Origin: [Phialemoniopsis] sp. UDSM-2020 | Lineage: Eukaryota > Ascomycota > Sordariomycetes > Thyridiales > Thyridiaceae | Direction of reading: 5' to 3' | Assembly: GCA_018873225.1 (NCBI GenBank) | Contig: JAEILZ010000002.1 | Span: 992,001-1,056,000, forward strand | DNA: 64,000 nucleotides | Shown: positions 20,355-49,498 of the stretch, one piece after another | How the letters are laid out: each line of letters begins with the position of its first letter | Position numbering within the stretch: the first letter of the stretch is position 1 | Made by a program: the position numbers and the translations under genes | Notes under the pieces: model-generated | What the model was told of the DNA's origin: nothing | Seen by the model: only the letters and a program-made list of their open reading frames with translations | The model's database searches: none

Positions 20355-20612
20355 AGCATTGGCACATAAATAAGAAGCCAGGGAGCGGAGGCTCGCCAAA
20401 AATTATCAAAGTGCATAGAAAGAGCACTCCGTCTCGAAATCAGTCCATCTTGGGGGGACGAAGAAATGAATGACCACAGTGTTACCGTAAAGCCTGATCC
20501 TGGCTACCTAGAGACTAATAGACACAACCCTTTTTGTTTTTCCATGACCCATTCCGATAACACTGCCTCATTGTCCTCTCCGCATTGAATGCGAATGCGG
20601 GACCAAGAGCTT

Positions 20613-22078
20613 CTACTGCTCTTCCTCCTCATTCTCCAGTTGCGGCTGGGGGGCCGAATCATCATTGCCCGACTGTAGGAGGCGAAGTCCACGGAGCTCT
20701 TGCTGCAGGCCAACGAGAGCCTGCTGCTGGACAGCGATAGTCTGCTGCTGGCCAATGAGAGTCTCGGTTTGATGGTTAACAGCCTGGACCAGATCCTGGA
20801 TGGGGTCGGTCAGGCGTTGGGTCTGATAGAAGTGGGTCTGCATGGCGTTGCAGACGTTGGTGTAGAATTGAACAATGGCTCGGTCCCTCAGGTTCTCTCT
20901 CCAACGGGCTTCCTGGCTCTCACGTCGGGTATCCTGGCAGGGGAGTCGAGTCAGATCAGCCAGAACACATCAAATCATACTGAAGAGTGAACTTACCCGC
21001 TGGGAGTTGTGGAGTGCATGAATGAACTCGTCCCGAGTGATGGGGGCGCCTCCATGCGGGACAGGAGCGAATCCAAACGGGAATGGCTGGGTGCCCATGC
21101 CATCCAGTCCGTTGCCAGAAGCTCCCGCAAACTCATACGTGCCGGGGATAGGGCCTCCTAGGTTGGCTGGGCCGTTCTGGGCTTGGGACGCCTAGTCCTC
21201 ATCCCGGAAACCGCCAGTTGCCAGCTGAGCCGCGGTCGGCCAGTTCTCGTGGCGGTAGAAAACCCAGCGCGTCTCGGTGTTGACTGGGGCAGGGGTGGCT
21301 CCGATAGTCGCGGCAGGGGTCGCTGTAGTAGTCGAAGCCGAGGTAGTGGCCGGGGTTTCCTGTGTTTTCTGCTCTCGTCAGCGAGGGGGACCTCACCGGT
21401 AAGCCGCAGAGACGTGCAAATGTCCAAAGATCTCTCCACATAGATGATTCCCGCCGCAAAGGGCACAAGTGCCCCACCGACCAGACAGTACCCGAACGGC
21501 ACATGCAATCAGAAAAGGGACCTAGTCGCCAAGAGCCGTACATGGAACTCAATCGTCGCGGTTGTCAGAGGCGCGTTACAAGGTCTCGCTTCCCTTTCCC
21601 TCATTTCGCACTCGACCCTGCCGCCAGCTTGCGCGACGCGACGAAGCTGAGCAGCCGGCTGCCCGGATTTGGGTCTCAAACTGGGATACAAACATCCGAA
21701 TGCCGACGTAAAACGACGGGGGGACGCGCAACAACCAGGACACCGCGGGAATCTTCTGCCACCGCGAAGTGGCAAAGCGTCCAACCTTGGGGCAAAGAGC
21801 GGATCGTATGCCGAAAGGAAAGTCCAGCGAAGCTCATCAGAAAAAAAGATCTTCATATGAGCTACTCGCGTATGCTGAACCATTTTGCGGACGCCTTATG
21901 TGGTGTCTTGCGACACAGGTGGGGTTGGCCACCACGAGATGCACCAAAAGGTGCGGATCTTTTTGAGAATCCAGGGGATAATGAAATTCCAAGGATGGCT
22001 TACCTGCTTCTTCTGAGCCTTGCCTGGCTCAGAGCCGTTGGCGGAGGCCTGAGCTGACTTGCGCTTGCTGCGACCCAT
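20613..22078 (-). CDS. Family member M1: basic N-terminus, in-frame UAG, coiled-coil C-terminus
   Basis: Three exons, all phase 0: 22078-22004 (25 codons, basic MGRSKRKSAQ), 21359-20997 and 20933-20613. The first intron is 644 bp and ends with the family's conserved 3' element; the second is 63 bp. The middle exon is Thr/Ala-rich, then RWVFYRHENWPTAAQ, then a TAG at 21194-21192, after which the same frame stays open with coding-like use (GGPIPGTYEFAGASGNG, ITRDEFIHALHNSQR) into the last exon. The last exon is Gln-rich coiled coil (NHQTETLIGQQQTIAVQQQA) with an acidic tail. Unedited, translation would give an 80-residue product; read through, about 251 residues. The TAG sits in the loop of a 6-bp hairpin (GGGATG / CGTCCC). 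A TATA box is at about 22322. Function unknown; a nucleic-acid-associated role is only suggested by the basic N-terminus. A decayed gene is the alternative. Confidence 0.65.
21360..22003 (-). other. Long first intron of M1 with conserved 3' element
   Basis: A 644-bp intron, long for this genome. Its 3' end (21406-21360, minus) reads GCTTACCGGTGAGGT, then C-rich sequence, then CGCTGACGAGAG, and ends in ACAG. The same block ends the first introns of the three other UAG members. The CTGAC is a good branch site. No independent gene is seen inside. Confidence 0.6.
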
Positions 22079-24152
22079 CGTGATCGTCGTTGTTGACGTG
22101 GAAAGAGGTGATCAACCGGTGAGAATGTTTGACGTGAAAAGGAAGAGTTTGAGATAATGTGCGAGGGAGTTGATGATGAAAAAAGAAGACGGAGGAGGAA
22201 AGAGGAAGGGATGAAGGGAGAGGAAGTGGGAGGGGAAGATGGCGAGGGAAAAGGTGGGAGAAGGTTGAAGGTTTGGAAGGAGGAAAGAAATTGAGAGAGG
22301 AGGGAGGGGAGGTGTGTGGCCTTTTATAGGGCTCGGGGGAAAAAAAAGGATTAGCCGAGAATTGGCCGCCGAGTGAATAGAGGGCAGCCTCTGTCAATTG
22401 TTTTTGAGAAGTGAAGCGAAAAGTGAGGTGAAGGTCAGGGTGTAGATGAAGTGACGAGGTCGTGAAGTTGGCTGGCTGGCTGGTGGGGTCTTGAGTTGGG
22501 GACAGCCGGGTTGGGAGAGCCACCGCCCTTGAGTCTAACGGCATCGCTAGCGACATACAGTGGTCTATCAAAAGATGGTATGCAGTACTGGGCAAAAGCA
22601 AATTCTCGTAGCATTATGCAATGGCTAAGTGTTCTCACAAGCTATGCTGTGGCTATCTCGGAGAGCATGGTTATATCCATGGGCTTTAGCTTCTCCCGTG
22701 CACAGCTTGAGTAGACTGCGTATTCAGAGCATCCAGTCCCTTAAGGCCATGAAGTCCCTGCATTCAATCAACATATGGGTGCTCCAATCTCCCATCCCCG
22801 AATTGCCGCCCGATCCATCGAAGCCACTGTTGTAGCAGCAATACGTCTAGATTTGATGCTTTGACAAATATGAAAACACGACTGACAATATGTCAACCAG
22901 GAGGCGAGGCGGAGATATATTTTGAGACGATTTACTGTACTAATCGTTGTTGAGTGCCGTCGTATGCTCTGAGACGCAGAATCTCGTGAAGGTGAGCACT
23001 ACTTTAAAGTTGCTAGTCCTGTTAAAGGGCCTGAAGGGAGGTCTCCTCGGTCTCAAATGCGCTCTGGTCGCCGGCGTGATGCGAAAACCTCTGACTTGCA
23101 TCCTTCCACAGCAGTCTCGACTTTTATGACTAGACAATTGCATTGAGTACGATGCCTCTCAATTCGCTTGGACAGTTACGTTCCGAGTACGGCGATGCTT
23201 GTCCGAGAGCTCTCGAAAGCATTGTTTGGTTGAGTAGGAGAGGGCAGCGACGGGTTCACAGCAATTCCTTGGTAAATCTGGTGTGTTCTATTGCAAATGA
23301 CCTTGCTTCAGAGTCAAGGACCTTTCGGATCCAGGTTCTCAGAGTGCTTTGGGAGATCACGATGTTTCTGAATTCTTCCTTCCCCTCACTGCCAAGTCTC
23401 GTTTGAATCCCTGGCCTGCCTTTGCCTCAGGCCTTGAATTTCTGAAGAGTCAAGTGGTATTCCACACTAAGAACACTCATGACCACGCCGGTATTTATTA
23501 GCGCGTTGAAGAGAGTTGTCAGAATCACAATCGGCGAGGTCTGTTGAGGTATGTTGCAGGTGGCTCGGGTATTTGTCCAGCCTTGTCGGTGGGGCTGAAA
23601 CCATTGGAGGATTGACGGTTGAAGGTACTCCGTCATCCAGGATCGCCAGGTCGGGTGCTTGAGCATGGTACTTCCACTCAAAACCTATCGGCGGAGCGGC
23701 CGAATGTATTGCTTAGACATGACTAACCAGCTCATGCTCAACGTGTATCAAAGACTACATTCGATTGTCTTTATGCTTCAGCTTACCAGTCTGGTGTTTG
23801 ATACGCTCGAAACAAACCGCCAGTGTGTATGAGTGTCAGGTCTTGTTTCCTGTGGTACTTGAACCATTCTGACCAGGTTAATGTCTTCCATAATTTGCAG
23901 ATGAGGATTTAGATTCTTCCTGTCAGATGTGCCACCTGCCCGGCTAATGCAGGCTGTAGACACGGAAATACCCAAAGGTTTTGCGATTCTCCACGGTTGG
24001 GGGCGGACTTTGGAGAAACGTCTCTTCTTCTTTCAGTGGCTGTGGAAATCTACTGAGAAGCGGGCTCTTCAAGATCGCCAAACCCTTGCACGGCTAGCTA
24101 CCACATCCAAGCGTGCCCGTCAGAGCAAGACCATTCCCATACCAAATCTATC
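22079..24152. other. Intergenic region, about 2.1 kb
   Basis: The first 300 bp upstream of M1 is very rich in A and G on the plus strand (pyrimidine tract on the M1 sense strand) and holds a TATA box at about 22322. The rest shows only short frames without splice support; I see no gene. Confidence 0.45.
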
Positions 24153-24810
24153 TCAATCTAGGTCTTCATCACTGCCCTCGCTAGGGAAGGCATAGCCCGT
24201 CACATTCTGAGCATGCTGAACTACCCAACCAACCAGTCCGGCAGCAGTTCCCACCCAGCCCTCCGTCGCGCGCGCATTATCCTCCAGCACAGCGATGTAA
24301 TTCTCATACTTTTCTTTCTCGCGCTCGCGAGCAGCCATAGCCACGTGGTAAGTCTCTTCGAGAACGCGTGAGGCTTTCATGACCTCAGCATGCTCCTCTT
24401 CGAGAACGCGTGATGCTTTCTGGGCCTCGGCATACAGAAGTTGTACCTGCTCGATCGCCGCGATCAAGGGTTCGATCTTCGCTTTCTGCTGCTGGAAACA
24501 CCGCAAGAAACACGGGTTAGCTAGAGAACAGCGGACGGTGTGTCCATCTCACGATAGCACTAACCTCACCGAGACGCTCAATAGTCTCCTGAAGATGCTG
24601 GTTCTCCTTCTTGAGACGCTCCAGCTCATGTTCGCGTTCCAAAATCTCGTTTTTGTTCTGCTCCTCTTCTCGTACCGCCTCCGGATTGTATGAGATTGAG
24701 GCGTTGTCGCGCGGCGCCATGGTGGTTAGTTGTTTGTTTTCGGGGTCTCCGTCTAGCTTGTCGGGCGCACCCGCAGTTGGCCCCATCGAGGGGTTGATTG
24801 CAGACTCCAT
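24153..24810 (-). CDS. Coiled-coil protein, 194 aa, same gene neighbourhood and style as the UAG family (R1)
   Basis: Two exons: 24810-24565 and 24491-24153, with a 73-bp phase-0 intron. The first half is disordered and acidic (PTAGAPDKLDGDPENKQ), followed by a strong coiled coil (EREHELERLKKENQHLQET). The second exon continues as coiled coil and contains an internal duplication, KASRVLEE occurring twice 14 residues apart (plus-strand repeat near 24356-24420). It ends in a Gly/Val-rich segment GTAAGLVGWVVQHAQNVTG and an acidic tail. No domain of known function is recognised. It is divergent from the next family member (25942) and lacks an internal stop and the long intron, so its kinship to the UAG genes rests on style and position only. 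Confidence 0.65.
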
Positions 24811-25652
24811 GACATTTGCACGTCGCGTTAGTTTGTGCGAGAGAGAAGAGAGGATAGAGTAGAGTTATTCTTACGGTGTTTGAAGGCAAGCGGTGCTCTG
24901 CGTGTGGGGTGGACAGACTGATGGAGCTTGGTCCGGTTATCAAAGTGACACGAACCTTTTAATTACTTGGATTGAGACTGCAAGTTTGTTTGCCAGCGAA
25001 ATAAAGAGGTGTGGATCGTGCTGAAACGCAGAAGGCGGCGGTCTGCACAGCGGCGAAGCACAAGAACAGCTGGAAGGGCCATGGAGAGCAAACAGCCACG
25101 CCGGCAAACAAAGAAGTGGCGGGGCACAAATTCCCTCAATAATTTAAAATCAGAGGTTGTCAAATATTTTGCTTTCGATAAGGGGATATGGTGGAATTTG
25201 GAGCAAAAAGGTATTTCATCATGCGTAAACTGGTATTGCATGTTTATCCAGGACATCATTGGCATCGTCGTTGAAATGGACAGCAGCAAGACAAGCAAGA
25301 CCTCACGATGAGGTCGACCCTGCGCCGAATGAATCGATATTGGTCGCCTTCTCATGTGCATGCATATTAGGCCTCGGGCTCGTACGACAGTATGTTCGTC
25401 AGTCTAAGTCTGTTTCAAGAACCACTCGCTGTACTGGGTACGGAAACATAATGATTGGAGTAATAAATCATGAGCCATTATTAATAAGTCGGGCTGGAAT
25501 AAAGATTTTGCGCCATTTGCTGAGGATGGCCCCTTTATGGTCTGTTGTGTGGTGGTGACTGTGGTGGTGACTGTGGTGGGCCGCGTGAATCACAACCACC
25601 CTTTGATTCTAAGGTGAATGGCCAACAATAGAAAGCTTCTAGTTCTTTCTTG

Positions 25653-25721
25653 TGGCAGAATTCCCACAAAGGAAATCCTGGAGCCTGCAAACTTTACACC
25701 GCCTTTGGCTCCCTATTTAAA
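25653..25721 (+). promoter_or_regulatory. Shared family promoter core, copy 1
   Basis: GGCAGAATTCCC, then GAGCCTGCAAAC, ACCGCCTTTGG and a TATTTAAAG box, upstream of M2. The same ordered blocks lie upstream of the genes at 31531, 34621 and 47921. A pyrimidine-rich 5' UTR follows. Confidence 0.7.
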
Positions 25722-25941
25722 GGCCTCCTCCCTCCTTCTCCCCTTCTCGCTTTCATCTCTCACACACAACCACCCACCACCCACCCACCTCAAAAGAGTT
25801 TCCGTCTCTGGGGTGCCTCCTACCTTCTGCCATTTCCTCCTCTCTCAAAAGATCATCACTGTCACCGTCCTTCTTCTTTGTCTTTTTCCCATCCTCCATC
25901 TCGCCAACCAAACCCAGCCGATCTCGTCTCCAAATTCCATC

Positions 25942-27089
25942 ATGACTCGAGACAAGAAGCGACGCCGAACGGAGTCTGAGGACTCGGTGAGAGATGGCCA
26001 GGTAAGCAATTCTTTCCAGAATTCTCTGTTGTCACACCAAGCCTGTCAAGGGAGCGGTACTCCGAGACATCAAGTCGTGTTCACACGCGGCTTGGTTGGT
26101 GCCCTCTGCTCTGCTTGCGACTGTTCCAACTTGCGAGTGCTCAACACGCAAAACTCCGGTGATACGGAGGCTGGACTTTTGCTCGCAGTTTGGCTCGTGT
26201 GGTCTAGTTGGCTCCCTGCATTCTTTACCTTTGAGAGATGGTGCTGGACGCATTTCCATGTCCCTTAACCCCTCAACCAAAGAAGCGGCATTGAGAAGCT
26301 CGGCTGCCAGTTTCGGTCTCGGCAACGGGCTGGTGGTAGGCGATATGTGTATATTCTGAATATGGCTCCGATCACCTTCGTGGTGTGCCGATACGCGAAA
26401 CCGTTCAGTCTGCCAGGCCTCGCGGGGTTCTTCTCTTTATTGCTGCCCTTCGGGTCCTGCATCGAGCCAACTATTCGTCCATCTTTTCTCTTTTTTTTTT
26501 GCAGCTTACCAGTGAGGTTTTCCCCGCTGACTGAGTGCAGGTTTCTCTAGGTACGAACGCTAGACAGTACGTCAACCCCGGCCCGGCCCGTCCTCGCCCA
26601 ACGCCTCGAGCTTCCGAGATCATGCCTGTGTCCAACAACCACCCGAACCCTCCTGCCGAATAGGGTCGCGCAGGAGTTTCGCAGGGCGGTAATAACATGG
26701 GCGTGACCCAAGCTCCTCCTGCGCCTCAGGGCCAGTACATGCAGAAGGTAAGCATTCTGCGTTGACTTCAAGAAGTTGCAACACTAACGTCAGGTGCACT
26801 GGAACAGCATCGCCGAGGAAACCAAGCACGCGGACATAATCTCGCGAAGGCATTCAGGAACCTCAACGACGAGGTCAAGACATTGAAAGAAGAGGTCGCC
26901 ACCCAGGCTGGAGAGCTCGCGACTTTGCGACAGACAAACGAGGATCAATTCAGAGCACTGAGTGCCACCATGCGCACCTTGCAGCTTGCTAGAGGTCAGG
27001 AGCCCACTGTGGGCATCGAGGGCCCCAACGAGAATGCTCCCGCCCCGCTCAAGCGCGCGGGAGTCGTGGCTAAGGCCAAGAAGAACTAG
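25942..27089 (+). CDS. Family member M2: basic N-terminus, in-frame UAG, coiled-coil C-terminus
   Basis: Three exons: 25942-26001 (20 codons, MTRDKKRRRTESEDS, NLS-like), 26541-26747 and 26808-27089. The first intron is 539 bp; the second is 60 bp, and its real acceptor is the second AG after the ACTAAC branch site, since only that keeps frame. The middle exon is Pro/Asn-rich and contains a TAG at 26661-26663. Reading continues in frame through GRAGVSQGGNNMGVTQ into a coiled coil (FRNLNDEVKTLKEEVATQ, ELATLRQTNEDQFRAL) and a basic end (KRAGVVAKAKKN). The TAG is in a 6-nt loop closed by ten base pairs with one bulge (26650-26676). Truncated product about 60 residues, full frame about 181. Function unknown. 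A loss-of-function CAG-to-TAG change is the alternative reading. Confidence 0.65.
26002..26540 (+). other. Long first intron of M2 with two conserved elements
   Basis: Contains ACTCCGGTGATACGGAGG at 26153-26170, able to form a CTCCG/CGGAG hairpin and shared with the introns at 31786 and, with changes, 34939 and 48181. It ends with a T-run and the family 3' element (26505-26540: CTTACCAGTGAGG ... GCTGACTGAG ... CAG). Confidence 0.65.
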
Positions 27090-27763
27090 GTGCGCGCCTG
27101 GCAAAGAAATTTCGTCAAAGTCAAGTCCATAGATCTCCGCTCCGTAGCAGAGAAGTAAAAACATGACCAAGCTTGCCGAGCATAGATTAGCATGATTTCT
27201 TATAAATGATCACATGTTTCAAGATGCTTTGCTATGCAATATACTGTTGACCTATGCCAGTGAGCGTCCTGGTCTGTATTTGACAAGACCTCATCCTTCC
27301 TCAGCGGTAGAGAGTAGCTTGGTCCTGACATACCACCGATCGGATTTGTTGATTCATCTCGGACTTGAGAATGTACTCGTCTCATTAAACTTCTCAAAAT
27401 GACACGACGGGCAACTTTTCGAGAATTGCACAGGGTTGATCTTGCTTGTCCACTGCACTGACAGCAATCTACAGCCTCGCCGTCAACCCTGGCATCCGGA
27501 GTGGGGCAACTGAAGCTTTCCCAAATGGGCAATTGGCACGAGCAAAAATTCCCAAGATAAATCCGTGCTAAGTCCAGCAATTACCGAGATCCTGTCCATA
27601 AAGAATCCATTGAATAAAGAAGGAAAACTCGTTGGTCACTGTTTGCGATCCTCTTTGTTTTTACAAACTGTCTTTCTTTCTTCGCGCTGCTTTTGGTTTG
27701 TGCAGACGACAGTCTCCTTTGTCAACTCTCCTCCAGTCGCACCTTGGCGAGTAGGTCAGCACA
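27090..27763. other. Intergenic region, about 0.7 kb
   Basis: 3' flank of M2 and promoter of the DHA2 transporter. No other feature was recognised. Confidence 0.45.
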
Positions 27764-29789
27764 ATGACAGACCAAAAGATCATCACAGAACCTGAGACAG
27801 GAGAACGCGTTGCGGACAACAAAGAAGATGTGACGCCCACCGCCAATGTGGTCTACCCGTCCCGGTTCAATCGCAGCATCATTGTGCTGAGTCTGATGCT
27901 TGCTACGTTTCTCGTAGGCTGCTTTGTCTGCTCCGCTTTTGCCTTTATGCTGACTGCCGCGATGCTACCAGATCGCCCTGGACATGGTAAGATCCAAAGC
28001 TCATTGTCATGTCGCGCCCCTGATCTGACTTCGGGAACAGAGTATCATCGGCACTGCGATCCCGAGGATCACGACCGACTTCAATAGCATGGCGGACGCG
28101 GGCTGGTACGGCAGGTATGTCACCTACTCACACCCAGCAATTTCTCTCCCAAGCTAATGATTCGTCTCTTCCACAGCGCCTTCTTCCTCACCCTGGCCAC
28201 CTTTGTCTCGGCGTGGGGTAAGGCCTACAAGTACTTCTCCCTACGAATCGTCTACATCGCGGCCATATTCATCTTCGAAGTCGGCAGCCTGGTCTGCGCC
28301 GTCGCCCCGAACAGCATCGCCCTTATCATCGGGCGTGCCGTCCAGGGCATCGGCGCGGCGGGTGTGGCGAACGGCGGCTACACCATCACGGCATTTGTCG
28401 TCCCGCCCGCGGTCCAGCCTACGGTCGTCGGCCTTATGGGCTCCGTCTTCACCGTGGCGAGCATCGCGGGCCCGTTGCTGGGAGGAGCATTCACGTCGGG
28501 CGTGTCTTGGCGGTGGTGCTTCTACATCAACCTTCCTATCGGAGGCGTCACCATGGGCTGCATGCTCTTCTTCTTCAGGACCCCGGCTCACGCAAAGTCA
28601 GGACACGGCACGCCCATTCGAGACGTCCTCATCAACTTCGACCCCATAGGCTCGGTGCTGATGTTCTCGGGCGTGCTGTGTTTCTTTCTTGCCCTGCAAT
28701 GGGGAGGCGTGGCCAAGCCGTGGAGCTCGGCAGACGTGATCGGCCTGTTGGTCGGCTGTGTGGTTCTTCTTGGGCTGTTCACGGTGAACGAGTGGTATCA
28801 AGGGGATCGCGCCTTGATTGTCTTTCGCATACTGCGCTCGAGATCCATCGGCGCATGTTCCGGCTTCATCTTCTTGTTCGTGATCAACTCAAAATCCTTT
28901 GTCACACTAGCATACGCTAATCAATCTTACCGGCAAACAGCCTCAATGCCGCGAACATCGCGCTTCAGTACAACCTGCCCATCTACTTCCAGGCCATACA
29001 GGGCGATACACCCGTGCAAAGCGGCATCAAGATGATACCTTCGATTCTCTCAACTGGTAAGATTAGGTCTCCCTGGACATGTCCCGCCCAGACAAGCTCG
29101 CTAACACTCGGGTGTCAAAGCCCTTGCTACCATGATCGCCTCGGTCAGCATGGGCAAGCTGCAATTCTTCCAACCATTCCTGCTGGCCGCGGGTGCCATC
29201 GGCACCATCGGCGTCGGGCTGATCTACACCTTCGGTCTCGACGTGGGCCTCGGTCCCATCATCGGCTACCAGATATTGTATGGCGTTGGCTGTGGCCTCG
29301 GAGTCCAGACGCCCAACCTCGTCGCCACCGTGACGAGTCCCGCAGAAGACGTGTCAATCGCCGTCTCGACAGTTTCGTGTATGTCTTCCCTCCCGCTCTT
29401 CCCACAGGTTCTCAACGGGATCAGGCTAACTTCTAGAACCGGGTTCTGCAGTCTTCATGCTCCTTGCCGGCGGCTGGGGAGTAGCCGTGACCGATTCCAT
29501 CTTGAACAACTTGCTCATCAAGAAGCTCCCCCAGTATGTCGAGGGGATCGACCCAGGGGCTGTTCTGAGCGTTGGTGCCGCTGGAATCAAAGACGTGTTT
29601 CAAGGAGAGACACTGGAGGGTGTTCAGCGTGCCTATCTGGATGGACTACACGGCGGCTGGGCCCTGGGCACGGCCGCTTTTGGAGTTACCCTCCTCTGTG
29701 CTTTGATACCCAAGTGGACTGGTAGGCTTGTATCTGCTGCAAAGATACGGCAAGAAAGACCGAGCGATGCAGTAGTGATATCGGCCTGA
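27764..29789 (+). CDS. MFS transporter, DHA2 (14-TM) efflux type, 549 aa
   Basis: Plasma-membrane drug or toxin:H+ antiporter of the 14-TM type. Exons are 27764-27913, 27972-27986, 28041-28114, 28177-28875, 28941-29056, 29121-29378 and 29452-29789. The second is a 15-nt micro-exon coding IALDM of the conserved TM1 motif LATFLIALDMSIIGTAIP. Motif A region is SAWGKAYKYFSLR, TM4 has GRAVQGIGAAGVANGG, and motif C in TM5 is AGPLLGGAFTSGVSWRWCFYINLP. The second half contains QYNLPIYFQAIQGDTPVQSG. The family includes HC-toxin, aflatoxin and multidrug exporters. The intron starting at 28876 has an unusual GTTCGT donor, so that boundary is less sure. The gene lies in the middle of the UAG-family cluster without any biosynthetic neighbour. 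Confidence 0.88.
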
Positions 29790-30113
29790 TTGCAGCTCGG
29801 TCGGCTGTCCTTCTCTACTCGTTGAACATACGTATATGTACATTAATAAACACCGTCTCCACTCAGTCCTTGCGAAAGTTCAACATGAAATCGCATGACT
29901 TATGCCAAAATGAACCAACGATCGATCAGGGAGGGGGAGCAGGTGCAACGCCTTAGCTTGGGATTCATAAATGTTCATCTGAACCAATTCAATTACTGTC
30001 CACCATGGAGTCGCTCCTTTCCTAGCCGCGCCAAATCAACTTCGATTGTCAAGTTGCATGAGCGCTAGTCAGCGGGAGACCTAGGTCTAATCCACGTAGC
30101 TGACGCTACCTTA

Positions 30114-30724
30114 CTATTCTTCCATTGTCTGGCCCACACACAGCCCTTTCAAAGTCTCCTCCGCCTTCCCAAAGAGTTTCTTCTCCAGACGCTCGATCCT
30201 AGTAATCATGGGACGAATGAGATCCCACTCATCGTCGTATGCCCTCAAGGCATTCCGCTGCCAGATGTCAACCGAGTTCATGAAGCCGTTGAGCTTATGG
30301 TTCAGCTGCGCTACTTGGCTTCTCATTTCCTGAAGTCTCGGGTTGTCAGTACACGATAGGAGTTAAAAGATTTCCGAGTGAGACGACGTACCTTTCGATC
30401 TCGTCGAGCGGTGTCCCGATATGCCTGCCATGCCTGAGAGTTGGGCTTCTTCTGTGCCTTCGCTCCGCTAGGCTGAGGATGCTTTATGGACTTCTGCGGA
30501 TTGACAACCCGAGGTCGTTTGAACGGCGTGGGCTGTTTGTTATCGGACCGTGGCCCGGTCTTTCCTTTCTGTTGGGAGGTGATTAGCAAGGCATGAGTGA
30601 CGATAAATGAGCCCAAGCAGTGAAAATAAATGCGGGAAGAGGTCGTGAAATGCCTTACCTGGGTGTTATGAGCCTTGGAAGGACTCTTCTTCTTGATTCT
30701 GTTTCGCTTTCCACGAGCAGCCAT
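30114..30724 (-). CDS. Small basic/coiled-coil protein, 152 aa (related member R2, no internal stop)
   Basis: Three phase-0 exons: 30724-30659 (MAARGKRNRIKKKSPSK, strongly basic), 30568-30392 and 30329-30114. It follows the family plan but with a short first intron (90 bp) and no in-frame stop. The middle exon is Lys/Pro-rich and disordered. The last exon begins EMRSQVAQLNHKLNG, directly comparable with the EMLKRFRELHAK start of the gene at 46598-47287, and forms amphipathic helices (ITRIERLEKKLFGKAEE). The NLS-like start suggests the nucleus. Function unknown. It is divergent from M3, about 0.8 kb away. Confidence 0.7.
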
Positions 30725-31018
30725 GATGATCTGTACTCGCGATGGTATCAAGCTTGCGTTTGCTGAAACCCTGCTAGGGGTTGGGGTTTAAACGGTGCCG
30801 GAAAAAAGAACAAAGAAGATCTCTCCCGACCTAGTGCCCCAAGCTGGGTAGGTGGCTTTTTTGGTGTCTGTCTTTGTCGTTGAGTTACAACAGGATAGCG
30901 CAGCAACGCCTTCTTTGTTGTGTATTCCGCGAATAGACTTCTTTCTCGTCCACTTTGAAAGACCCTTTTGTTGATTCAGAATCTGGGTGTTTGGTTTCAT
31001 TTTTGTGGGAGAAAGCTC

Positions 31019-31265
31019 GGACCACTCGCTCGTTTCTTTGTTCAAGTTCTCAATGTCTCGCTGCTCACTTCACCAACTGCCAAGGCGGGATCATCCTTTG
31101 TCTTCCCCATTCACCTCATCTGATCCTTCATCTTCGCAAACCTAACAACGCATTTCTAGGCAAAGTACCTCAAAGCATTGAGTTCAATCCAGCGGCAGAA
31201 TATCCCAAAAGAGAGAAATAGACGAGCCTGCAAATCCCGTCATCGCCTTTGGGTGGTACATAAAC
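31019..31265 (+). promoter_or_regulatory. Shared family promoter, copy 2
   Basis: The core at 31194-31250 has GGCAGAAT, GACGAGCCTGCAAAT, CCGTCATCGCCTTTG, then the TATA-like ACATAAAC. An upstream block GACCACTCGCTCGTTTC at about 31020 matches GACCACTCGGTCGTTTC before the gene at 34621, so similarity extends some 200 bp. Confidence 0.7.
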
Positions 31266-31530
31266 CTCCCTCTCCCACCAAATTTTCAACTTCTCTCTCT
31301 TCCTCATCAAGTTCAAAGTCCTCGACAACCCACCACCAACACCACCGGACTTTTCCTCCTCCTGCCTTTCCCTCCTCGTATATTTGACCGGGGAAATCTA
31401 GTAAGTCGTCGATCTGCTTGTTTCTTCACCTCGCTATCTACATATGCAAGAGCACTTCACATTACCTCCGGAGTTTGTTCAACGAATTCATCCCTAGATC
31501 GAAGCTAACAAGGTCGTTTCCAGGTTCACG

Positions 31531-32833
31531 ATGGACCAGCTCCGGAAAAGGTTGAAGCAGGCGCTTGTCATTCGTCCAAATGCCGAGTCGATCGATAGCC
31601 TGGAACAGGTAGGCCACTCTCCAGATCCCCATATCTCTTGAGTGCTCAGAGCATCGCACTATGCGATGCAGACTTGGCCCGTGAAACGGCTGGCATGGCA
31701 AGAAGTTCAGTTGCGGTCACACGTTCTGGATTATGCCAGCCAATCTGCGCTGGGTGTCCTATATGCGAGTTCCTTCGACACGCAAACTCCGGTGATACGG
31801 AGGTGGGATAACTCAAAACAGTTGGGCTCTTGTCGCCTTCATCGCGATCATTTCTCTGCATGGCAACCCAAAGCAACCGTAGTAAGAAACTCTATCGAGG
31901 AGCCCGGCCTGACGCCCTCTCTTGCTGGGGCCGAATGTGCATCTCAAGGTATAGGCTGAGAAACGGTACTGTAACTCGTGGTATTCGGCTGGAACCACTC
32001 AGACTGCCGTATGCAACGGGGTACTCCTTTGTGGTTTTGGGCATGTTACAGATTTGAGATACGCATGAAGTTCTTTTTTTTTTCTTGGACGGCTCAGCCG
32101 TGCACAGCTTACCGGTGAGGTTTCCCCCCCGCTGACTGAGAACAGGATCAACCGGAAGCACTCCCCCAGCCAACGCCTACAACAACATCTACAGACACAA
32201 CCATGACATCATTGCCAGGAGCAATGATGACCAGACCCTATGCACTGCGATCTCCGGACTTAGAATGCTTCATACCGTCGTCCCCCACCTTCTGCCCTGG
32301 CTCCCCCATGTTCTCGCCGGAAACTCCCACGATCTCCACATCCAGGATTCCTTGGCCAGAGTACAACACTACTAGTTGGAAAACCTCTTCAACCCGATCG
32401 TCGCGTTTCAGCCGTTTCGATTGTGGCTAGCAACCACCGAATCCGGCCAACGGTGTCAATGAAGACACCCGCTATGCCGCATTCTCCTCGCCCCAGCCAC
32501 AGAAGTATGGCAGCGTAAGTGTGCTTAGAGAGAGCAACCTTCACCTGAAAATCGTGCTTGACTGATCAAAAGTCTTAGCGACCAATGTATAGAGTCACCA
32601 CGGTGGAGGAGCTGCAAAAGGAGTTCGAGGACAAGTTGCAGTGCTCGGAATGGGAGAGGCAGCGGTCGCACGGGGAGCTGGAGCAGAGATACAGGGACCT
32701 GAAAAAGGACAGCAACGATACGAAAGAGGCGCTCCGGAGTCTGGACGCCGAGGTCAGGCGCATGGCGGACGCGCTGAACCACCCCCATGCGCTGCCTGGA
32801 GCGAAGCGCGCTCGTGGCTATCTTGACGGCTGA
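31531..32833 (+). CDS. Family member M3: in-frame UAG, coiled-coil C-terminus
   Basis: Three phase-0 exons: 31531-31608 (MDQLRKRLKQALVIRP), 32146-32514 and 32579-32833. A 5'-UTR intron appears to end at CCAG just before TTCACGATG, as in M4. The middle exon is Ser/Pro/Thr-rich (SPTFCPGSPMFSPETPT) and contains a TAG at 32428-32430. The frame then continues (QPPNPANGVNEDTRYAAF) to the last exon, a charged coiled coil (VEELQKEFEDKLQCSEWER, LEQRYRDLKKDSNDTKEALR). Truncated product 120 residues, full frame about 233. The TAG is in a 7-nt loop closed by GTGG/CCAC. First intron (537 bp) and promoter are shared with M4 and others. Function unknown. Confidence 0.68.
31609..32145 (+). other. Long first intron of M3 with conserved hairpin and 3' element
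   Basis: Starts like the M4 intron (CACTCTCCAGAT ... TTGAGTGCTC). It carries ACTCCGGTGATACGGAGG at 31786-31803, a TTTGAGATACGCATGAA block at about 32053 also present in M4 (about 35290), a T-run, and the family 3' element at 32107-32145. Confidence 0.65.
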
Positions 32834-34089
32834 GGAAGGTCGGGTACCGGCGGAACACACGAGAAACCCGTGCCAACACTTTGCACTTGTAGAACTGCCG
32901 ATGATAGCGAGGGACTGTCGGTAAAGTTCTCCTCCAGGCATCATCTTTTTATGCTCGGCATATAGAGTTTGCCCTTTCCCGAGGAGTTTATTCAAGTATC
33001 GAGCTCAGCGGCCATGCATATCGCATGGGAGAGACATCGCGGTGAAATGATCAAGGAGATGAAAAGCATCCATATACCATAAGGTTTGCCGTTTTGCCCT
33101 TTTGGAAATGATTGCATTGTACCATTTGGTCGACTGACTGTGGGTCGGACTGACCGTGCTGCTGTCAAAAATGTTTGACTCAACCACGCGGCAGAGGATG
33201 GCGGGAGCGAATAAGCTAAAGAATTTCAATACTAGATAGTAATGCGCCATAATTGCTCTTTGAAAAGAATGGCTCAATAGTAACTTTCATCCTTCCTCGT
33301 TATTCTACGTTCCCGTTACGTAGGTTTTATTTGCTTAATCGTACCCTCGATGTGTCCTGCCAGTTGGCCGACTGGGCGGTGTGATGGCCATAGGCGTGGA
33401 AACCTTTTTCTCTACTCGATAGACTCTGGATTCGGCTGATCAAGGTCACAATTAATTTTCAAGCGGAAACCCAGAGCACTTTCGTGCCATTGAGGGACTT
33501 CCGAAATAAAACCTTCTCAATTTGCGATGAACCTCATGAAACCACCGTTTCAATTTTAGACATCTAGATATAAATATGTGAGCAAATGCGGAAGCGCCGT
33601 GAGGTAGTGATATAACTAGCGGTCACGGCGAGCAACCTCCATGTGCACACGACGGCTGTTCATGTTGGGTACGTATGCACATCGGAACTTCCCTCTGATT
33701 TCCAAGTGCCTTACTTGCGCCGCATCAAAACATAATCTGGAGTCACCATCAACATCCGCTTGGATGTGATCGCAGGAGGGGCAGACTATGTCTCCAGCTC
33801 AACCCACATCTAGAATTGGCGGTTTGTGATCGGAGGCAAATCTTTCTTGCTTCGTTTTTCCTTTCCACGAGAGACCATGGCGGCATAACTTTGTGGCTGA
33901 CGACTAATGCAACTCTGATACAAATGATCTTGGATTTTGGTATGCAGCAGTCCGCTCAGAGGTGTAACAGAGAAGGCCAGTAAGGGAACATTGGTCTGGC
34001 TGCTTCAGTCGGGCGGAACTAGCAATGGCACTTCATATGAGAATCCCAGGCTCTTGTCATGCTGATGCCTGAGGATTTATAGACGCTTA
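32834..34089. other. Intergenic region, about 1.25 kb
   Basis: Between M3 and the promoter of M4. Short frames only; no supported gene. Confidence 0.45.
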
Positions 34090-34320
34090 GACCACTCGGT
34101 CGTTTCCCGACGCCCTGGTGCCAACTCACCCACTCACCAGTCGGCTCCACACTTCGATGACTTCGTTCTCACTTCACACCTCACTTCATCCGACTCAATA
34201 AGCTCGACCATCTTCTTGCAGCTCGAAGCTTCTGGTGAATTCTACGGGCAGAATTTCCGAAAAGGGTAATTCAGGCGAGCCTGCAAACGCCGTCACCGCC
34301 TTTCTCATCACTATTTAAAT
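34090..34320 (+). promoter_or_regulatory. Shared family promoter, copy 3
   Basis: Upstream block GACCACTCGGTCGTTTC at 34090. Core at 34246-34303 with GGCAGAATTTCC, GGCGAGCCTGCAAAC and CGTCACCGCCTTT. TATTTAAAT box at 34312-34320. Confidence 0.72.
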
Positions 34321-34620
34321 CCTCTTCCCCCTCCCCTCCACCCACCTTCCTCCTCCTCCCAACAACCTCGACCAGGTGTTCCGCAGTCCTCCCCTCGCCG
34401 CCAACAAGGACTGCCTCTTCCTCACCTACTTCTTCCTGTCCTTCTTCCCAGTTGCTTCTTCTTGAACATCTAGTAAGTCATTTACCCGACTGTCTCCTCG
34501 CGCCACCTTTCCCCACCCGCCTCACTTCCTCGCTCCCTCACTTTCAGTTTGTGCCCACTCCAAAAGATCATCTCTTTTTTTTCAACGTCAGAGTTAACAA
34601 TATTCTCTGTCAGGGTCACG

Positions 34621-36238
34621 ATGGACTCCAACGAGGACAAGAACAAGAAGCGAAGATACCGCCCGACCGCCCAGCGGCGAAAGGAGAACAAGATCAAGCG
34701 CCAGAAGCTTGAAGACACCCAGGTAAGCCGCTCTCCAGATTTCATCTTTTGAGTGCTCGGATCGCCGGCATGGTCGTGGCAGTCCAATCCTGCCTCGCCT
34801 TCTGGTACCGACAAGGGTCTGTGAAACGACTGGTGCAGCGAGGTCTCCAACGGGGCTCACGCGCCCACGGATTCCACCAGTCATACTACCGCTCGTCGGG
34901 ATAGCCAAAATGTCCCGTGCCCTCATCCAGGCACGCTAGCTCCGGTGAAACGGGGGGTTGGTTATCTCGATGGTAGTTGGACTCCTTGTCATTTTCATCG
35001 CGATCATGTCTCAACTTACCTCGGCCAGCGGGATCAATGGAAATCAGGTATGGGTCATGGAGTCTTTTCCTACGTCCCTCTGGATGATGCCATTGACACC
35101 CCGCATGGAAACCAGGTATGGGTCATGGAGTCTTTTCCTACGTCCCTCTGGGTGATGGGACACTGCCGCAGGCCCGGCCTCAGCTCCTTCTCGCGAATGG
35201 ACAGATGGCATGCAGAGCGGTACTGAGTTCTTCGGTATGCGTGTACATTGAAACGGGGTACCTGGTCATGTCTGCGGGCTCGTTGGGATTTGAGATACGC
35301 ATGAACTTCTTTTTTTTCCTTTTGGATTTGTTTTTCCTTGAATGGCTCAGCCATTCCTGCTTACTCAGTGAGGTTTTCCCCCGCTGACCGAGAACAGAAT
35401 GATCAGGCGATGCGCCACGCTGCGGCCTTCCCTCCTCCTCAGGATCGACGACATGGACATTCCGAGCTGACCTCGGAACGTCGTCACTACGAAGCTCCCG
35501 ACATGGAAGCCCAGAAGCGAGTCTGGCCTCCGCATTCAATCCCTGGATTTCCTGGCCCTGGCCCCCAGCATCCCGACTCTTTGGCTGGCTAGGAGCAGCA
35601 AGTCTCTCGTTCTGGGTCTGATTCGTCACTGGCTGTCGGTCCCCGTAGCACGCATGATGAGCATATCGAGGCTGAAGGCGAGGCTGAAGTTGCAACTGAG
35701 GCCGAAATCCAAGTGGTAGCTAACCAGGACCAGACAATCTCTGTAAGTTTAAACATATGAACATGGTCATATCACGCGGTCCTGGCTCTAACACAATCTT
35801 ACATAGGAGCGACCTGCCCCTCCCGCCAACTTTGACGAGCTCATGGACCGGTTCACCAAACTGAATTTGAAGACGGAAACCTTGCAGCAGAAGTACGACT
35901 CGCTCAAGCTGAGATGCGACGCTTTGGAGCGTGAGAACGCGAAGTCGAAGCGTGGCGGACCGGATTCCGTCGAAAAGATGAGGCTTCTATGCGAGAAGCA
36001 CACCACCACGATGCGTCATGTGGCTGATTGGTTCTTCCGGGCGGCTGGAACCCGAACCTATGGCATGGAGAAGCATAGCACGAAGACGCTCGCCGATGAT
36101 CGAGCCAAAGTGGGAGAGGATGTGGACTGGAAGTTGGACACGAAGTTCAATGCGGCTTTGCGCCGGCATGGAGCGATTGGTCCTCATCCTGCATCTCAGC
36201 AGATTCAGGGTCGTCGCCCCAATCGCCGAATCCAGTGA
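34621..36238 (+). CDS. Family member M4: basic N-terminus, in-frame UAG, coiled-coil C-terminus
   Basis: Three phase-0 exons: 34621-34722 (34 codons, KNKKRRYRP and RRKENKIKRQK, a strong NLS-like stretch), 35398-35742 and 35807-36238. A 5'-UTR intron ends at CAG a few bases before TCACGATGGAC. The middle exon has charged and Pro-rich sequence, a TAG at 35590-35592, then an open acidic frame (EGEAEVATEAEIQVV). The last exon holds a coiled coil (LNLKTETLQQKYDSLKLR) and a further conserved-looking helical region (EKHTTTMRHVADWFF, DWKLDTKFNAALRRHG). Truncated product 98 residues, full frame about 292; this is the longest member. TAG lies in the loop of a GCTG/CAGC hairpin. Function unknown. The 144-codon open last exon argues that the downstream frame is maintained. 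Confidence 0.7.
34723..35397 (+). other. Long first intron of M4
   Basis: 675 bp. Contains the variant hairpin block CTCCGGTGAAACGGGG (34939-34954), a 68-bp tandem duplication (35037-35157), the TTTGAGATACGCATGAA block and the family 3' element (35359-35397). Confidence 0.65.
35037..35157 (+). repeat. Tandem duplication inside the M4 intron
   Basis: The string CAGGTATGGGTCATGGAGTC and the next 19 bases occur at about 35045 and again at about 35113, 68 bp apart, with flanking TGGAAATCAGG/TGGAAACCAGG. This is a recent local duplication in non-coding sequence. Confidence 0.8.
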
Positions 36239-36578
36239 GCTGAAGCTTACTCTAGATTTATGTACATTACATTCCTGTGGAACAATGTTCACAGTGTCCT
36301 GAATTGAAACCCCGGTTGGTTGTACAGCATGACCGTCACGTGAAGAATGTCTTGTTTTGCCCAACTCCATCCGCCGCCTGACACCTCGAAGCAACTCAAA
36401 CCTACCCCTGCCCAAATGATTTTTTCCAAGGCTGATGCCCATGTGTCAAATACTTCAATCATCATTGATTTGAAGGAAAAACGACAAAAGCCGGTTTACG
36501 CGACTGGACCAGGTGCAACTCTGCCCCTTCAGTGCCATTCGCATTTCCTAGCCACATCGAGCTGGTCTTCATCGAGAC
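36239..36578. other. Intergenic region, 340 bp
   Basis: 3' flank of M4 and promoter of the HET gene. Nothing else recognised. Confidence 0.45.
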
Positions 36579-47488: not shown

Positions 47489-47560
47489 GGCAGAAAATCC
47501 CAAAGCGGAAATTCAAGCGAGCCTGCAAACGTTTCTCACCGCTTTTGAGGTCTATAAATA
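47489..47560 (+). promoter_or_regulatory. Shared family promoter core, copy 4
   Basis: GGCAGAAAATCCC, GGAAATTCAAGCGAGCCTGC, then AAACG, CTCACCGCTTTTG and a TATAAATA box at 47553-47560. It matches the cores at 25653, 31194 and 34246 although the gene lies 12 kb away from that cluster. Confidence 0.72.
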
Positions 47561-47920: not shown

Positions 47921-48798
47921 ATGGCGGATCGAAACAAGTACGGATCCCACTCTGGTCGCAGAAAGTCTGCTCCCACGAACCAGGTAAGCTTCCTCCGGAT
48001 CCCCACATCCCTGGATTCCCAGTTTGATCTTTCCATGTGCTCGCGCCCTGGATCGATCTGTTCCCCGAGAGTCTGTCAAAGACACAGTACGCATGAGAGG
48101 TCCAAAGTCGGGGACTTTAGTCCTCGGCTGGACTGTACTGGTCATCTGCCTGCGACTGTTCCTGCTTGCGCCATCGCAAGACTCCGGTGACTCGGAAATG
48201 GGACTTTTGCTCGCAGTTGGACTCTCACTTCGTCAGTTCCCTTTTTGCATGTCTTACTGGGTGCGGGTGCGCCCCCGAGTGCAGGCGAGGCTTTTCGCCC
48301 CCTCACCTCCACGCAAGCGTCCGAAGGCGCGGGTTCGCCCCCTTCCGGCGTAGGTGCGGGTTCGCCCCCTAATAGCGTTGAGGATATCAGACAGCCCGGC
48401 TTCCTTGCTCCCTTCTCATCTGGGGCAAGGTCGTGAAGCAGAACGTATAGATTGCAGGGTTAGCTAGAAAGACCTGGGAAACTGCAATGGACCTTGCTCA
48501 CGCGGTGCGCATCCCTCAGTCCGTCCCTGCCTTCTGCATTGCTGAGCGGGGTAACTACTGTCTGAGGGTCTTTATGACTCTGGTCGCGGTGTGAGCTGGA
48601 GGAAGTACAGCACCGTTTGCCGTGTGCGTGCCAGTCATGCTCTCTTATTCTATCTATCCCTTACTAACATCGATTGTCTAGGAGAATGCACGCCTGAGGG
48701 AGGACAACGCGGCCCTGCAGAAGCAGCTTCGCGAGATGCGCAAGCTAATTGAGTTGTACGAAGAGTACATCAAGAATCACGAGGGCAACATGGGATGA
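47921..48798 (+). CDS. Small family-type gene (R4): basic first exon, long intron, coiled-coil last exon
   Basis: First exon 47921-47983 (MADRNKYGSHSGRRKSAPT, 21 codons) and last exon 48682-48798 (RLREDNAALQKQLREMRKL, a coiled coil of 38 residues) join in frame, giving 59 residues. The promoter is the shared family promoter, and a 5'-UTR intron probably ends at TTGCAG eight bases before the ATG. The 698-bp intron contains the CTCCGGTGACTCGGA hairpin variant at 48181 and GGACTTTTGCTCGCAGTTGG, nearly identical to the M2 intron. A middle exon comparable to those of M1-M4 may be hidden in this interval (about 48280-48560), but I could not place it with good splice sites. Function unknown. Confidence 0.55.
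48262..48370 (+). repeat. Short imperfect repeats GTGCGGGTTCGCCCCCT
   Basis: Three copies of a GTGCGGGT(G/T)CGCCCCC-like unit at about 48261, 48328 and 48353 inside the long intron of the 47921 gene. They are GC-rich against their surroundings and may mark a hidden repetitive middle exon. Confidence 0.6.
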
Positions 48799-49498
48799 TT
48801 CCTTTCAGAGACACGAGCTCCTCTACTAGGTTCTTGAGTCAGAGGCTGTTGGTCCCGTCACAAAGGCTGTCAAGTCAGATCTGGGTTCGGGGCTGATATA
48901 AGAATAAGTCCGGAGGGTTTATGGGTTCCATACCCGGTTTCGAGTGTTCTCGTAACTTGACGAAACTCCCTAGTTATTCGAAATGACTGAATTGATGTTT
49001 TCAGCCATCATCGTCTTGCGATAATTAGCGAAACGGTTGCACGTCCAGAACTTCAGTTCAGCCACTAAAAATATTCCAGGATTACTGTCCACATTTTGGT
49101 GTCTTTGACCTAAGAAGTACATGAAATGTCGTACCGAAGGGCACTGTATGGAGAGATCTTGTTTGTCGTTCCGAATTGCAGAACGTGCAAGGTACACGGA
49201 AGAGGAGTGATGGGTGGCCCTGACAGCGTCTGTCTGCCACCCAGCTGTACCAGCATCCGTCTACAAACTAAGCATGCCAGTAGGTCCGGTGCACAGAATA
49301 TGTGAAGCAGCTGTAAGTTGAATGAAGCCATTTGAACATAAGTGAGGGTCAGGAGTCTTTGCATTTACCGGCCAGGCTGACGTGCTACAGGTCGGCCCAA
49401 CTATGCTCGTTACATACTAGGTCAGGCTTCCGCCAGAGCAGGAGACTTTGGTGCCGCAGTAAATTGAGGTCCGTTACAGCGAATGACAAGACATCACA
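48799..49498. other. Intergenic region between convergent genes, 0.7 kb
   Basis: No feature recognised. It separates the small family gene from the metabolic cluster. Confidence 0.45.

What the first reader, a model, noticed from the sequence alone, without database searches (positions are those of the whole stretch)
20613..36238. Four paralogous genes, each with exactly one in-frame UAG followed by an open coding frame: candidates for A-to-I stop editing
The genes at 20613-22078 (-), 25942-27089, 31531-32833 and 34621-36238 share an exon plan (basic exon 1, long intron, low-complexity exon 2, short phase-0 intron, coiled-coil exon 3). Each has one stop in exon 2 (21194-21192, 26661-26663, 32428-32430, 35590-35592). 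It is TAG all four times, never TAA or TGA, and the frame then continues 66, 60, 113 and 227 codons through a correctly phased intron. Random decay would not give one stop of one kind per gene. In Fusarium and Neurospora, A-to-I editing in the sexual stage turns UAG into UGG (Trp) in dedicated genes, including the Neurospora spore-killer gene rfk-1. The link to this family is inference.
Basis: partly seen in the sequence, partly recalled or inferred. Interest (0 to 1): 0.93.

Follow-up and report, generated by a model that had tools for sequence, protein, structure and literature searches.

The report
UAG-interrupted gene cluster in a fungus
A fungal chromosome carries four neighbouring genes that share their control DNA but not their protein sequence, and each has one stop signal in the middle that the cell may erase in its messenger RNA, which would make the proteins switchable; no RNA data were available to prove it.

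Summary
The four TAGs are real and at the stated coordinates; each interrupts an otherwise open three-exon frame. Corrected: codons after the TAG are 171, 121, 112 and 193, not 66, 60, 113 and 227. The genes are similar only in non-coding DNA: a promoter element (B, C, D and a fifth gene, E) and intron 1 (A-D). Their coding exons show no detectable similarity. 'TAG four times' alone is weak (P about 0.07 under decay). Better support for A-to-I editing: by the published 61-nt folding protocol all four UAG adenosines fall in predicted hairpin loops (P 1.00, 1.00, 1.00, 0.84; mean 0.33 in 600 GC-matched TAGs; resampling P 4e-4); flanking bases fit (P 0.016); and a PUK1-like kinase of this genome has UAG UGG, as reported for the edited Neurospora ortholog (PMC4817773). 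Against: C and D lose the hairpin in longer windows, their pre-TAG segments lack an in-frame coding signature, the PUK1-like site is itself not predicted in a hairpin, and there are no orthologs or RNA data. Best reading: stops gated by A-to-I editing (0.6). Exon-2 skipping and true stops or decay remain. A spore-killer role is untested.

The parts
22004..22078 (-). gene A exon 1 (basic)
20997..21359 (-). gene A exon 2 (low complexity, holds the TAG)
21192..21194 (-). gene A in-frame TAG; predicted loop, P(hairpin) 1.00 in 61, 101 and 201 nt and in the spliced CDS
20613..20933 (-). gene A exon 3 (helical, ends TAG)
25942..26001 (+). gene B exon 1
26541..26747 (+). gene B exon 2
26661..26663 (+). 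gene B in-frame TAG; P(hairpin) 1.00 in 61, 101 and 201 nt and in the spliced CDS
31531..31608 (+). gene C exon 1
32146..32514 (+). gene C exon 2
32428..32430 (+). gene C in-frame TAG; 7-base predicted loop; P(hairpin) 1.00 at 61 nt, 0.00 at 101 nt
32579..32833 (+). gene C exon 3 (ends TGA)
34621..34722 (+). gene D exon 1
35398..35742 (+). gene D exon 2
35590..35592 (+). gene D in-frame TAG; P(hairpin) 0.84 at 61 nt, 0.00 at 101 nt
35807..36238 (+). gene D exon 3 (ends TGA)
21377..21403 (-). intron-1 end element of A (CTTAC...GTGAGGT...GCTGAC, includes the branch-site-like CTGAC)
26505..26531 (+). intron-1 end element of B
32108..32136 (+). intron-1 end element of C
35360..35388 (+). intron-1 end element of D
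26154..26169 (+). intron-1 palindromic element CTCCGGTGATACGGAG of B
31787..31802 (+). the same element in C
34940..34955 (+). the same element in D (2 mismatches)
25681..25706 (+). shared promoter element, gene B
31224..31250 (+). shared promoter element, gene C
34277..34303 (+). shared promoter element, gene D
47519..47546 (+). shared promoter element, gene E
47921..48799 (+). gene E: exons 47921-47983 and 48682-48799, basic exon joined directly to a coiled-coil exon, no internal stop
30114..30724 (-). gene F: exons 30659-30724, 30392-30568, 30114-30329, similar plan, no internal stop; relation to A-E not shown by sequence

Best explanation
A-D are protein-coding genes whose mRNA carries one in-frame UAG that is recoded at the RNA level by A-to-I editing in a hairpin loop (the Tad2-Tad3-Ame1 type reported in Sordariomycetes, or another deaminase with the same preference), probably in the sexual stage. 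Unedited mRNA would give an 80-, 60-, 120- or 98-residue product and may be unstable, because the stop lies 195, 84, 84 and 150 nt before the last exon junction. Edited mRNA would give the full protein with its helical C-terminus. Shown: frames, stops, splice layout, shared promoter and intron elements, predicted loops. Inferred: the editing itself, its stage, the fate of unedited mRNA, and any function.
For: Single TAG in an otherwise open frame with intact splice sites in 4 of 4. Post-TAG part of exon 2 has an in-frame coding signature in 4 of 4 (z 3.7, 1.8, 2.1, 2.5) and exon 3 in 4 of 4 (z 4.3-5.5). UAG adenosine in a predicted hairpin loop in 4 of 4 by the 61-nt protocol of PMC9600606, resampling P 3.8e-4 against 600 GC-matched TAGs; P 0.0003-0.0037 for half-windows 15-30. 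Preferred bases at 5, 4, 5 and 6 of the 6 positions -2 to +4 (-1 and +1 are given by TAG itself), P 0.016 against 5265 coding contexts and 0.006 against 1077 window TAGs. Same genome: PUK1-like kinase with UAG UGG at the D-x-W-S site, as reported for the edited Neurospora PUK1 ortholog (PMC4817773); two DUF726 (Ame1-family) places. The stop sits in a low-complexity part ahead of the folded part, as in CHE1 (PMC11169179).
Against: No RNA evidence. No homologs found for A or D, so no conservation test. D leaves the predicted loop at half-window 35 and above and C at 45-50 (P rises to 0.044). In C and D the pre-TAG part of exon 2 has no in-frame coding signature and another frame scores higher. 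The PUK1-like UAG is predicted mostly in a stem (P(hairpin) 0.15). 4 of 4 TAG has P about 0.07 under ordinary nonsense mutation. A scan for single stops between coding-like stretches was not informative: only A of the four passed at the stricter setting, among 34 TAG, 30 TGA and 14 TAA.
Confidence: 0.6

Rival explanations
1. Exon 2 is a poison exon. Skipping it joins basic exon 1 to the coiled-coil exon in frame; including it ends translation. Splicing, steered by the conserved intron-1 elements, is the switch.
For: Exon 2 is phase 0 on both sides in 4 of 4. E has the skipped layout and shares promoter and part of intron 1. Intron-1 elements are conserved right up to the exon-2 acceptor.
Against: Exon 2 after the TAG keeps an in-frame coding signature in 4 of 4, which a poison exon does not need. 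Loop placement is not expected.
Confidence: 0.13
2. The TAGs are ordinary stops: the genes make short proteins, or are recently disabled, and the downstream frame is a fading remnant.
For: 4 of 4 TAG is not rare under decay, P about 0.07. C and D pre-TAG segments look little constrained. No homologs of A or D to show constraint.
Against: Four genes with one lesion each, no frameshift and intact splice sites; loop and context bias; strong in-frame signature in exon 3.
Confidence: 0.18
3. Translational readthrough of UAG.
For: C reads UAG CAA CCA, which fits the CAR-YYA readthrough motif (motif recalled, not from a call).
Against: A, B and D have UAG G contexts without that motif.
Confidence: 0.04
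4. Alternative splicing removes only the TAG, by a later acceptor for intron 1 or a small intron across the site.
For: Any in-frame TAG is formally a phase-0 acceptor. D has one in-frame acceptor with a CTAAC branch site, 3 codons before the end of exon 2; B has one spanning in-frame intron candidate.
Against: No branch-site-like sequence 5-45 nt before any of the four TAGs. Of the 8 acceptors used in my models 7 have CTNAC at 11-21 nt and the eighth has CTGAT at 14 nt. Conservation of intron 1 stops at the acceptor used.
Confidence: 0.03

Closest known systems
Premature-stop-correction genes of Fusarium graminearum and Neurospora (PUK1/NCU03242, AMD1, FgAMA1, FgBUD14; PMC11156358, PMC4817773)
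   Same: One UAG (or two in tandem) in an otherwise open frame; U at -1; preference for hairpin loops; many encode proteins without known domains.
   Different: Those were shown by RNA-seq or cDNA. The passages I read describe single genes, not a cluster that shares promoter and intron. Here the editing is only predicted.
CHE1 / zao genes with the OLD (OTT_1508) deaminases (PMC11169179, PMC12754623)
   Same: UAG in a poorly conserved, disordered part ahead of the functional C-terminus; predicted hairpin loop; duplicated in Neurospora (zao-1, zao-2).
   Different: No C2H2 zinc finger in A-D and no OTT_1508 deaminase in the window: the 4 genome hits lie elsewhere.
rfk-1 of Neurospora Spore killer-2
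   Same: A small gene reported to undergo RNA editing (I saw only the cited title of Rhoades et al. 2019 and short mentions).
   Different: No evidence here of killing, drive or resistance; sequences not compared.

Membership tests
Fungal premature-stop-correction (A-to-I edited) genes | One UAG interrupts an otherwise open coding frame | tested here: met
   4 of 4
Fungal premature-stop-correction (A-to-I edited) genes | Preferred bases around the adenosine (-2 C/U, -1 U, +1 A/G, +2 G, +3 A/G, +4 A/G) | tested here: met
   5, 4, 5, 6 of 6; P 0.016. Depleted bases: A at +3; B at -2 and +4; C at +2
Fungal premature-stop-correction (A-to-I edited) genes | Adenosine in a predicted hairpin loop (61 nt) | tested here: met
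   4 of 4; not stable for C and D in longer windows
Fungal premature-stop-correction (A-to-I edited) genes | Organism has mRNA A-to-I editing | tested here: inconclusive
   PUK1-like kinase with UAG UGG and two DUF726 places; orthology judged by motif, Ame1 key residues not compared
Fungal premature-stop-correction (A-to-I edited) genes | A-to-G in RNA from the sexual stage | not testable with these tools
   No RNA data held
Fungal premature-stop-correction (A-to-I edited) genes | Site conserved in orthologs | tested here: inconclusive
   No homologs of D or A; B and C not searched; fungal genomes of other species not available
OLD-ZAO module | OTT_1508-type deaminase gene next to the edited gene | tested here: not met
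   4 hits in the genome, none in the window
OLD-ZAO module | Edited gene encodes a zinc-finger factor | tested here: not met
   No zinc-finger match for A-D
Spore killers (rfk-1 type) | Kills non-carrier spores in heterozygous crosses | not testable with these tools
   Needs crosses

The most novel reading that the evidence does not exclude
A gene cluster built on one regulatory chassis (promoter element plus a 537-675-nt first intron) in which the protein-coding exons have been replaced or have diverged beyond recognition, while an editable UAG in a loop of the middle exon is kept in every member that has that exon. The stop, not the protein sequence, would be the shared trait: a set of editing-gated, fast-evolving proteins made only where the editing complex is active, as expected of a sexual-stage conflict or recognition system.
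Probability: 0.3. Interest if true: 0.82.

Novelty: new variant of a known kind. Interest (0 to 1): 0.62.

Why it matters
Whether restorative stop editing is adaptive or only tolerated is discussed in the literature (PMC12754623). Four neighbouring genes that share control elements, each keep one UAG, yet share no protein sequence would argue for selection on the stop itself. Conserved promoter and intron with unrelated coding exons is unusual in its own right. Perithecial RNA-seq would settle the editing question directly.

Tried and rejected
Led nowhere: Rfam on the whole window at gathering thresholds and on 20600-36300 at E <= 1: 0 matches each. Pfam on A-F at E <= 1: only matches below the curated cut-offs, mostly coiled-coil-like, among them Mer2 for A at E 0.19; not used. 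Homologs of D (1073 candidates) and A (1335 candidates): none at E <= 1; one search shows that the database holds many fungal proteins.

Considered and dropped: the TAG as a splice acceptor. A scan for single stops between coding-like stretches in 128,369 bases: at flank 28 it gave 44 TAG, 44 TGA, 22 TAA with threshold 0 (A and B among them) and 34, 30, 14 with threshold 0.05 (only A among them); uninformative, since antisense shadows pass too. An OLD-ZAO pair elsewhere in this genome as a second control: no listed C2H2 match within 10 kb of the 4 OTT_1508 hits (150 of 195 candidates were scored). RID as a control: 5 methylase matches, no internal stop, no information. Pairing of the 5' splice site with the intron-end element: possible as an isolated duplex (-11.2 to -15.9 kcal/mol in A-D; -7.6 in E) but not the predicted global fold.

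Limits: the 600 control TAGs come from the window and do not exclude the four sites themselves. The codon table is from 15 open frames of the window, some of which may include intron sequence.

Full report
Setting. The window is C4:992001-1056000 of a 44.18-Mb genome in 11 contigs. A neighbouring Zn2Cys6 protein (49499-51520, -) has its best-scoring named relatives in Fusarium (56% identity) and Clonostachys, so a Sordariomycete is likely; the species is unknown.

Observation. Exon models are listed under parts. All four frames run from an ATG through exon 1, a 537-675-nt intron 1, exon 2, a 60-64-nt intron 2 and exon 3 to a terminal stop, with one internal TAG each. The other two frames of exon 2 have 1 and 2 stops (A), 2 and 3 (B), 4 and 2 (C), 2 and 9 (D). 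Shuffling exon 2 gives at most one in-frame stop with probability 0.20, 0.42, 0.09 and 0.10 (joint 7.8e-4) and exactly one TAG with joint probability 3.5e-6. The kind of stop is weak evidence: 51-52% of one-step nonsense changes from the local codon usage are TAG, so 4 of 4 has P about 0.07.

What links the genes. Promoter DNA is similar among B, C, D and E in 6 of 6 pairs (z 7.9-14.5); that of A is not (z 0.7-2.8). Intron 1 is similar in 6 of 6 pairs of A-D (z 4.7-30.5), and for B-E (25.7) and C-E (5.7), not for A-E or D-E. Exon 1 (A-E), exon 2, intron 2 and exon 3 (A-D) and the proteins (A-F) give z of at most 2.8, 0.9, 2.3, 1.3 and 2.5; I count that as no detectable similarity. The coiled-coil exon of E was compared only within its protein. 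In the whole genome the promoter pattern occurs 4 times, all here; the intron-end pattern 5 times, 4 here and one on C5; CTCCGGTGANACGGNG 3 times, all here. The patterns were derived from these genes, so the counts show specificity, not independent discovery. Conservation ends at the splice sites: for B, C and D mean identity is 0.88 in the last 16 nt of intron 1 against 0.38 in the first 16 nt of exon 2, and 0.73 in the first 10 nt of intron 1 against 0.44 in the last 12 nt of exon 1. This supports the boundaries used, and hence that translation reaches the TAG. The four genes with the intron-end element and exon 2 all have a TAG; E, which lacks both, does not.

Coding signature. With a table from 5948 codons of the window, exon 3 scores high in frame in 4 of 4 (z 4.3-5.5) and post-TAG exon 2 in 4 of 4 (z 3.7, 1.8, 2.1, 2.5 for A-D). 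Pre-TAG exon 2 has z 3.1 in A, 1.5 in B, 1.2 in C and 1.2 in D; in C and D another frame scores higher. The pre-TAG parts are open with joint shuffle probability 7.4e-4 and the post-TAG parts of exon 2 with 3.5e-3.

Editing signature. With the published 61-nt protocol (PMC9600606, passages) the loop probability of the UAG adenosine is 1.00, 1.00, 1.00 and 0.84, against a mean of 0.33 in 600 GC-matched TAGs of the window; resampling P 3.8e-4. At half-windows 15-30 all four stay in loops (P 0.0003-0.0037); from 35 D and at 45-50 C drop out (P 0.0044-0.044); A and B stay. Preferred bases at -2 to +4 number 5, 4, 5 and 6 of 6; P 0.016 against 5265 coding contexts. In C the loop is GUGG-CUAGCAA-CCAC, seven bases in which U, A and G take the places of bases 33-35 of a tRNA anticodon loop (tRNA numbering recalled). 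Tad2-Tad3, the tRNA editor, is the reported mRNA editor in F. graminearum (PMC11087585, passages; PMC11156358, parts 1 and 2 of 3).

Does this organism edit? The protein-kinase search listed 137 match stretches (124 of 224 candidates scored); 5 carry TAG as their only kind of stop. By eye 4 of these 5 are intron edges. The fifth, C1:4067587-4067775 (-), reads GRCD-UAG-WSIGVILYECL with codons UAG UGG, aligned to the D-x-W-S kinase motif (the ULK1 chains shown have L at x). The N. crassa PUK1 ortholog is reported to have UAGUGG in its kinase domain, edited in perithecia (PMC4817773, passages). I call it PUK1-like from this motif only; no tree was made. Its UAG is predicted mostly in a stem (P(hairpin) 0.15), so the loop test neither proves nor excludes editing by itself. 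Two places encode DUF726 proteins, the domain of Ame1, of which two ancestral copies are reported in Sordariomycetes and Leotiomycetes. One of the four DUF726 match stretches contains a TAG near its end (C1:8508560-8509042); I did not resolve whether it is an intron edge.

Mechanism. The favoured model is an RNA-level gate. Without editing the product stops in the low-complexity region, and the stop lies 195, 84, 84 and 150 nt before the last exon junction, a distance that would expose the mRNA to nonsense-mediated decay where that pathway uses exon junctions (general knowledge, not tested). With editing the helical C-terminus is made. The plan resembles CHE1, whose UAG lies in a poorly conserved, unstructured N-terminal half ahead of zinc fingers and was predicted in a hairpin loop (PMC11169179, abstract and passages). 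The OLD-ZAO pairing of deaminase and target (PMC12754623, parts 1 and 2 of 3) is not seen here: 4 OTT_1508 hits in the genome, none in the window.

Rivals. Exon-2 skipping is the strongest alternative mechanism, since exon 2 is phase 0-0 in all four and E shows the skipped form; the coding signature after the TAG speaks against it. True stops or early decay cannot be excluded without RNA. Readthrough is plausible for C only. Splicing around the TAG lacks branch sites.

Literature. Searches run: in a library of open-licence PMC papers. In their listings I saw no report of a cluster of this kind; I make no wider claim.

Verdict. Editing is likely but unproven. The shared non-coding chassis around unrelated coding exons is the most surprising part and was not in the original finding.

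Noticed in passing
A 21377-21403 (-) with donor at 22003; B 26505-26531 with donor at 26002; C 32108-32136 with donor at 31609; D 35360-35388 with donor at 34723: The GCTTAC(C) of the intron-1 end element is complementary to the 5' splice site of the same intron (duplex -11.2 to -15.9 kcal/mol), but this is not the predicted global fold.
   Followed up: partly
window 35040-35148: Intron 1 of D contains two copies of a stretch of about 40 bases (GGTATGGGTCATGGAGTCTTTTCCTACGTCCCTCTGG), read.
   Followed up: no
window 48260-48370: Intron 1 of E contains short repeats like GCGGGTTCGCCCCC, read.
   Followed up: no
window 36552-37505 (+): A gene with a HET (heterokaryon incompatibility) domain lies just downstream of D (Pfam PF06985, E 3.2e-20).
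   Followed up: no
starts of A 22078, C 31531, D 34621, E 47921: Start codons of A, C, D and E share the context CACGATGG; C, D and E also seem to have a 5' UTR intron (by eye).
   Followed up: no
G000 C4:3511730, C6:3655494, C9:2656555, C6:4332752: Four OTT_1508-family deaminase genes (the family of the Neurospora OLD editors) in this genome; they could be editors of other transcripts.
   Followed up: partly
G000 C1:4067587-4067775 (-), locus L029: PUK1-like kinase with an internal UAG followed by UGG at the D-x-W-S motif.
   Followed up: partly
window 15401-17398 (-) and 24180-24810 (-): Two further genes with coiled-coil-like translations and no obvious internal stop near the cluster; exon models not worked out.
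   Followed up: no
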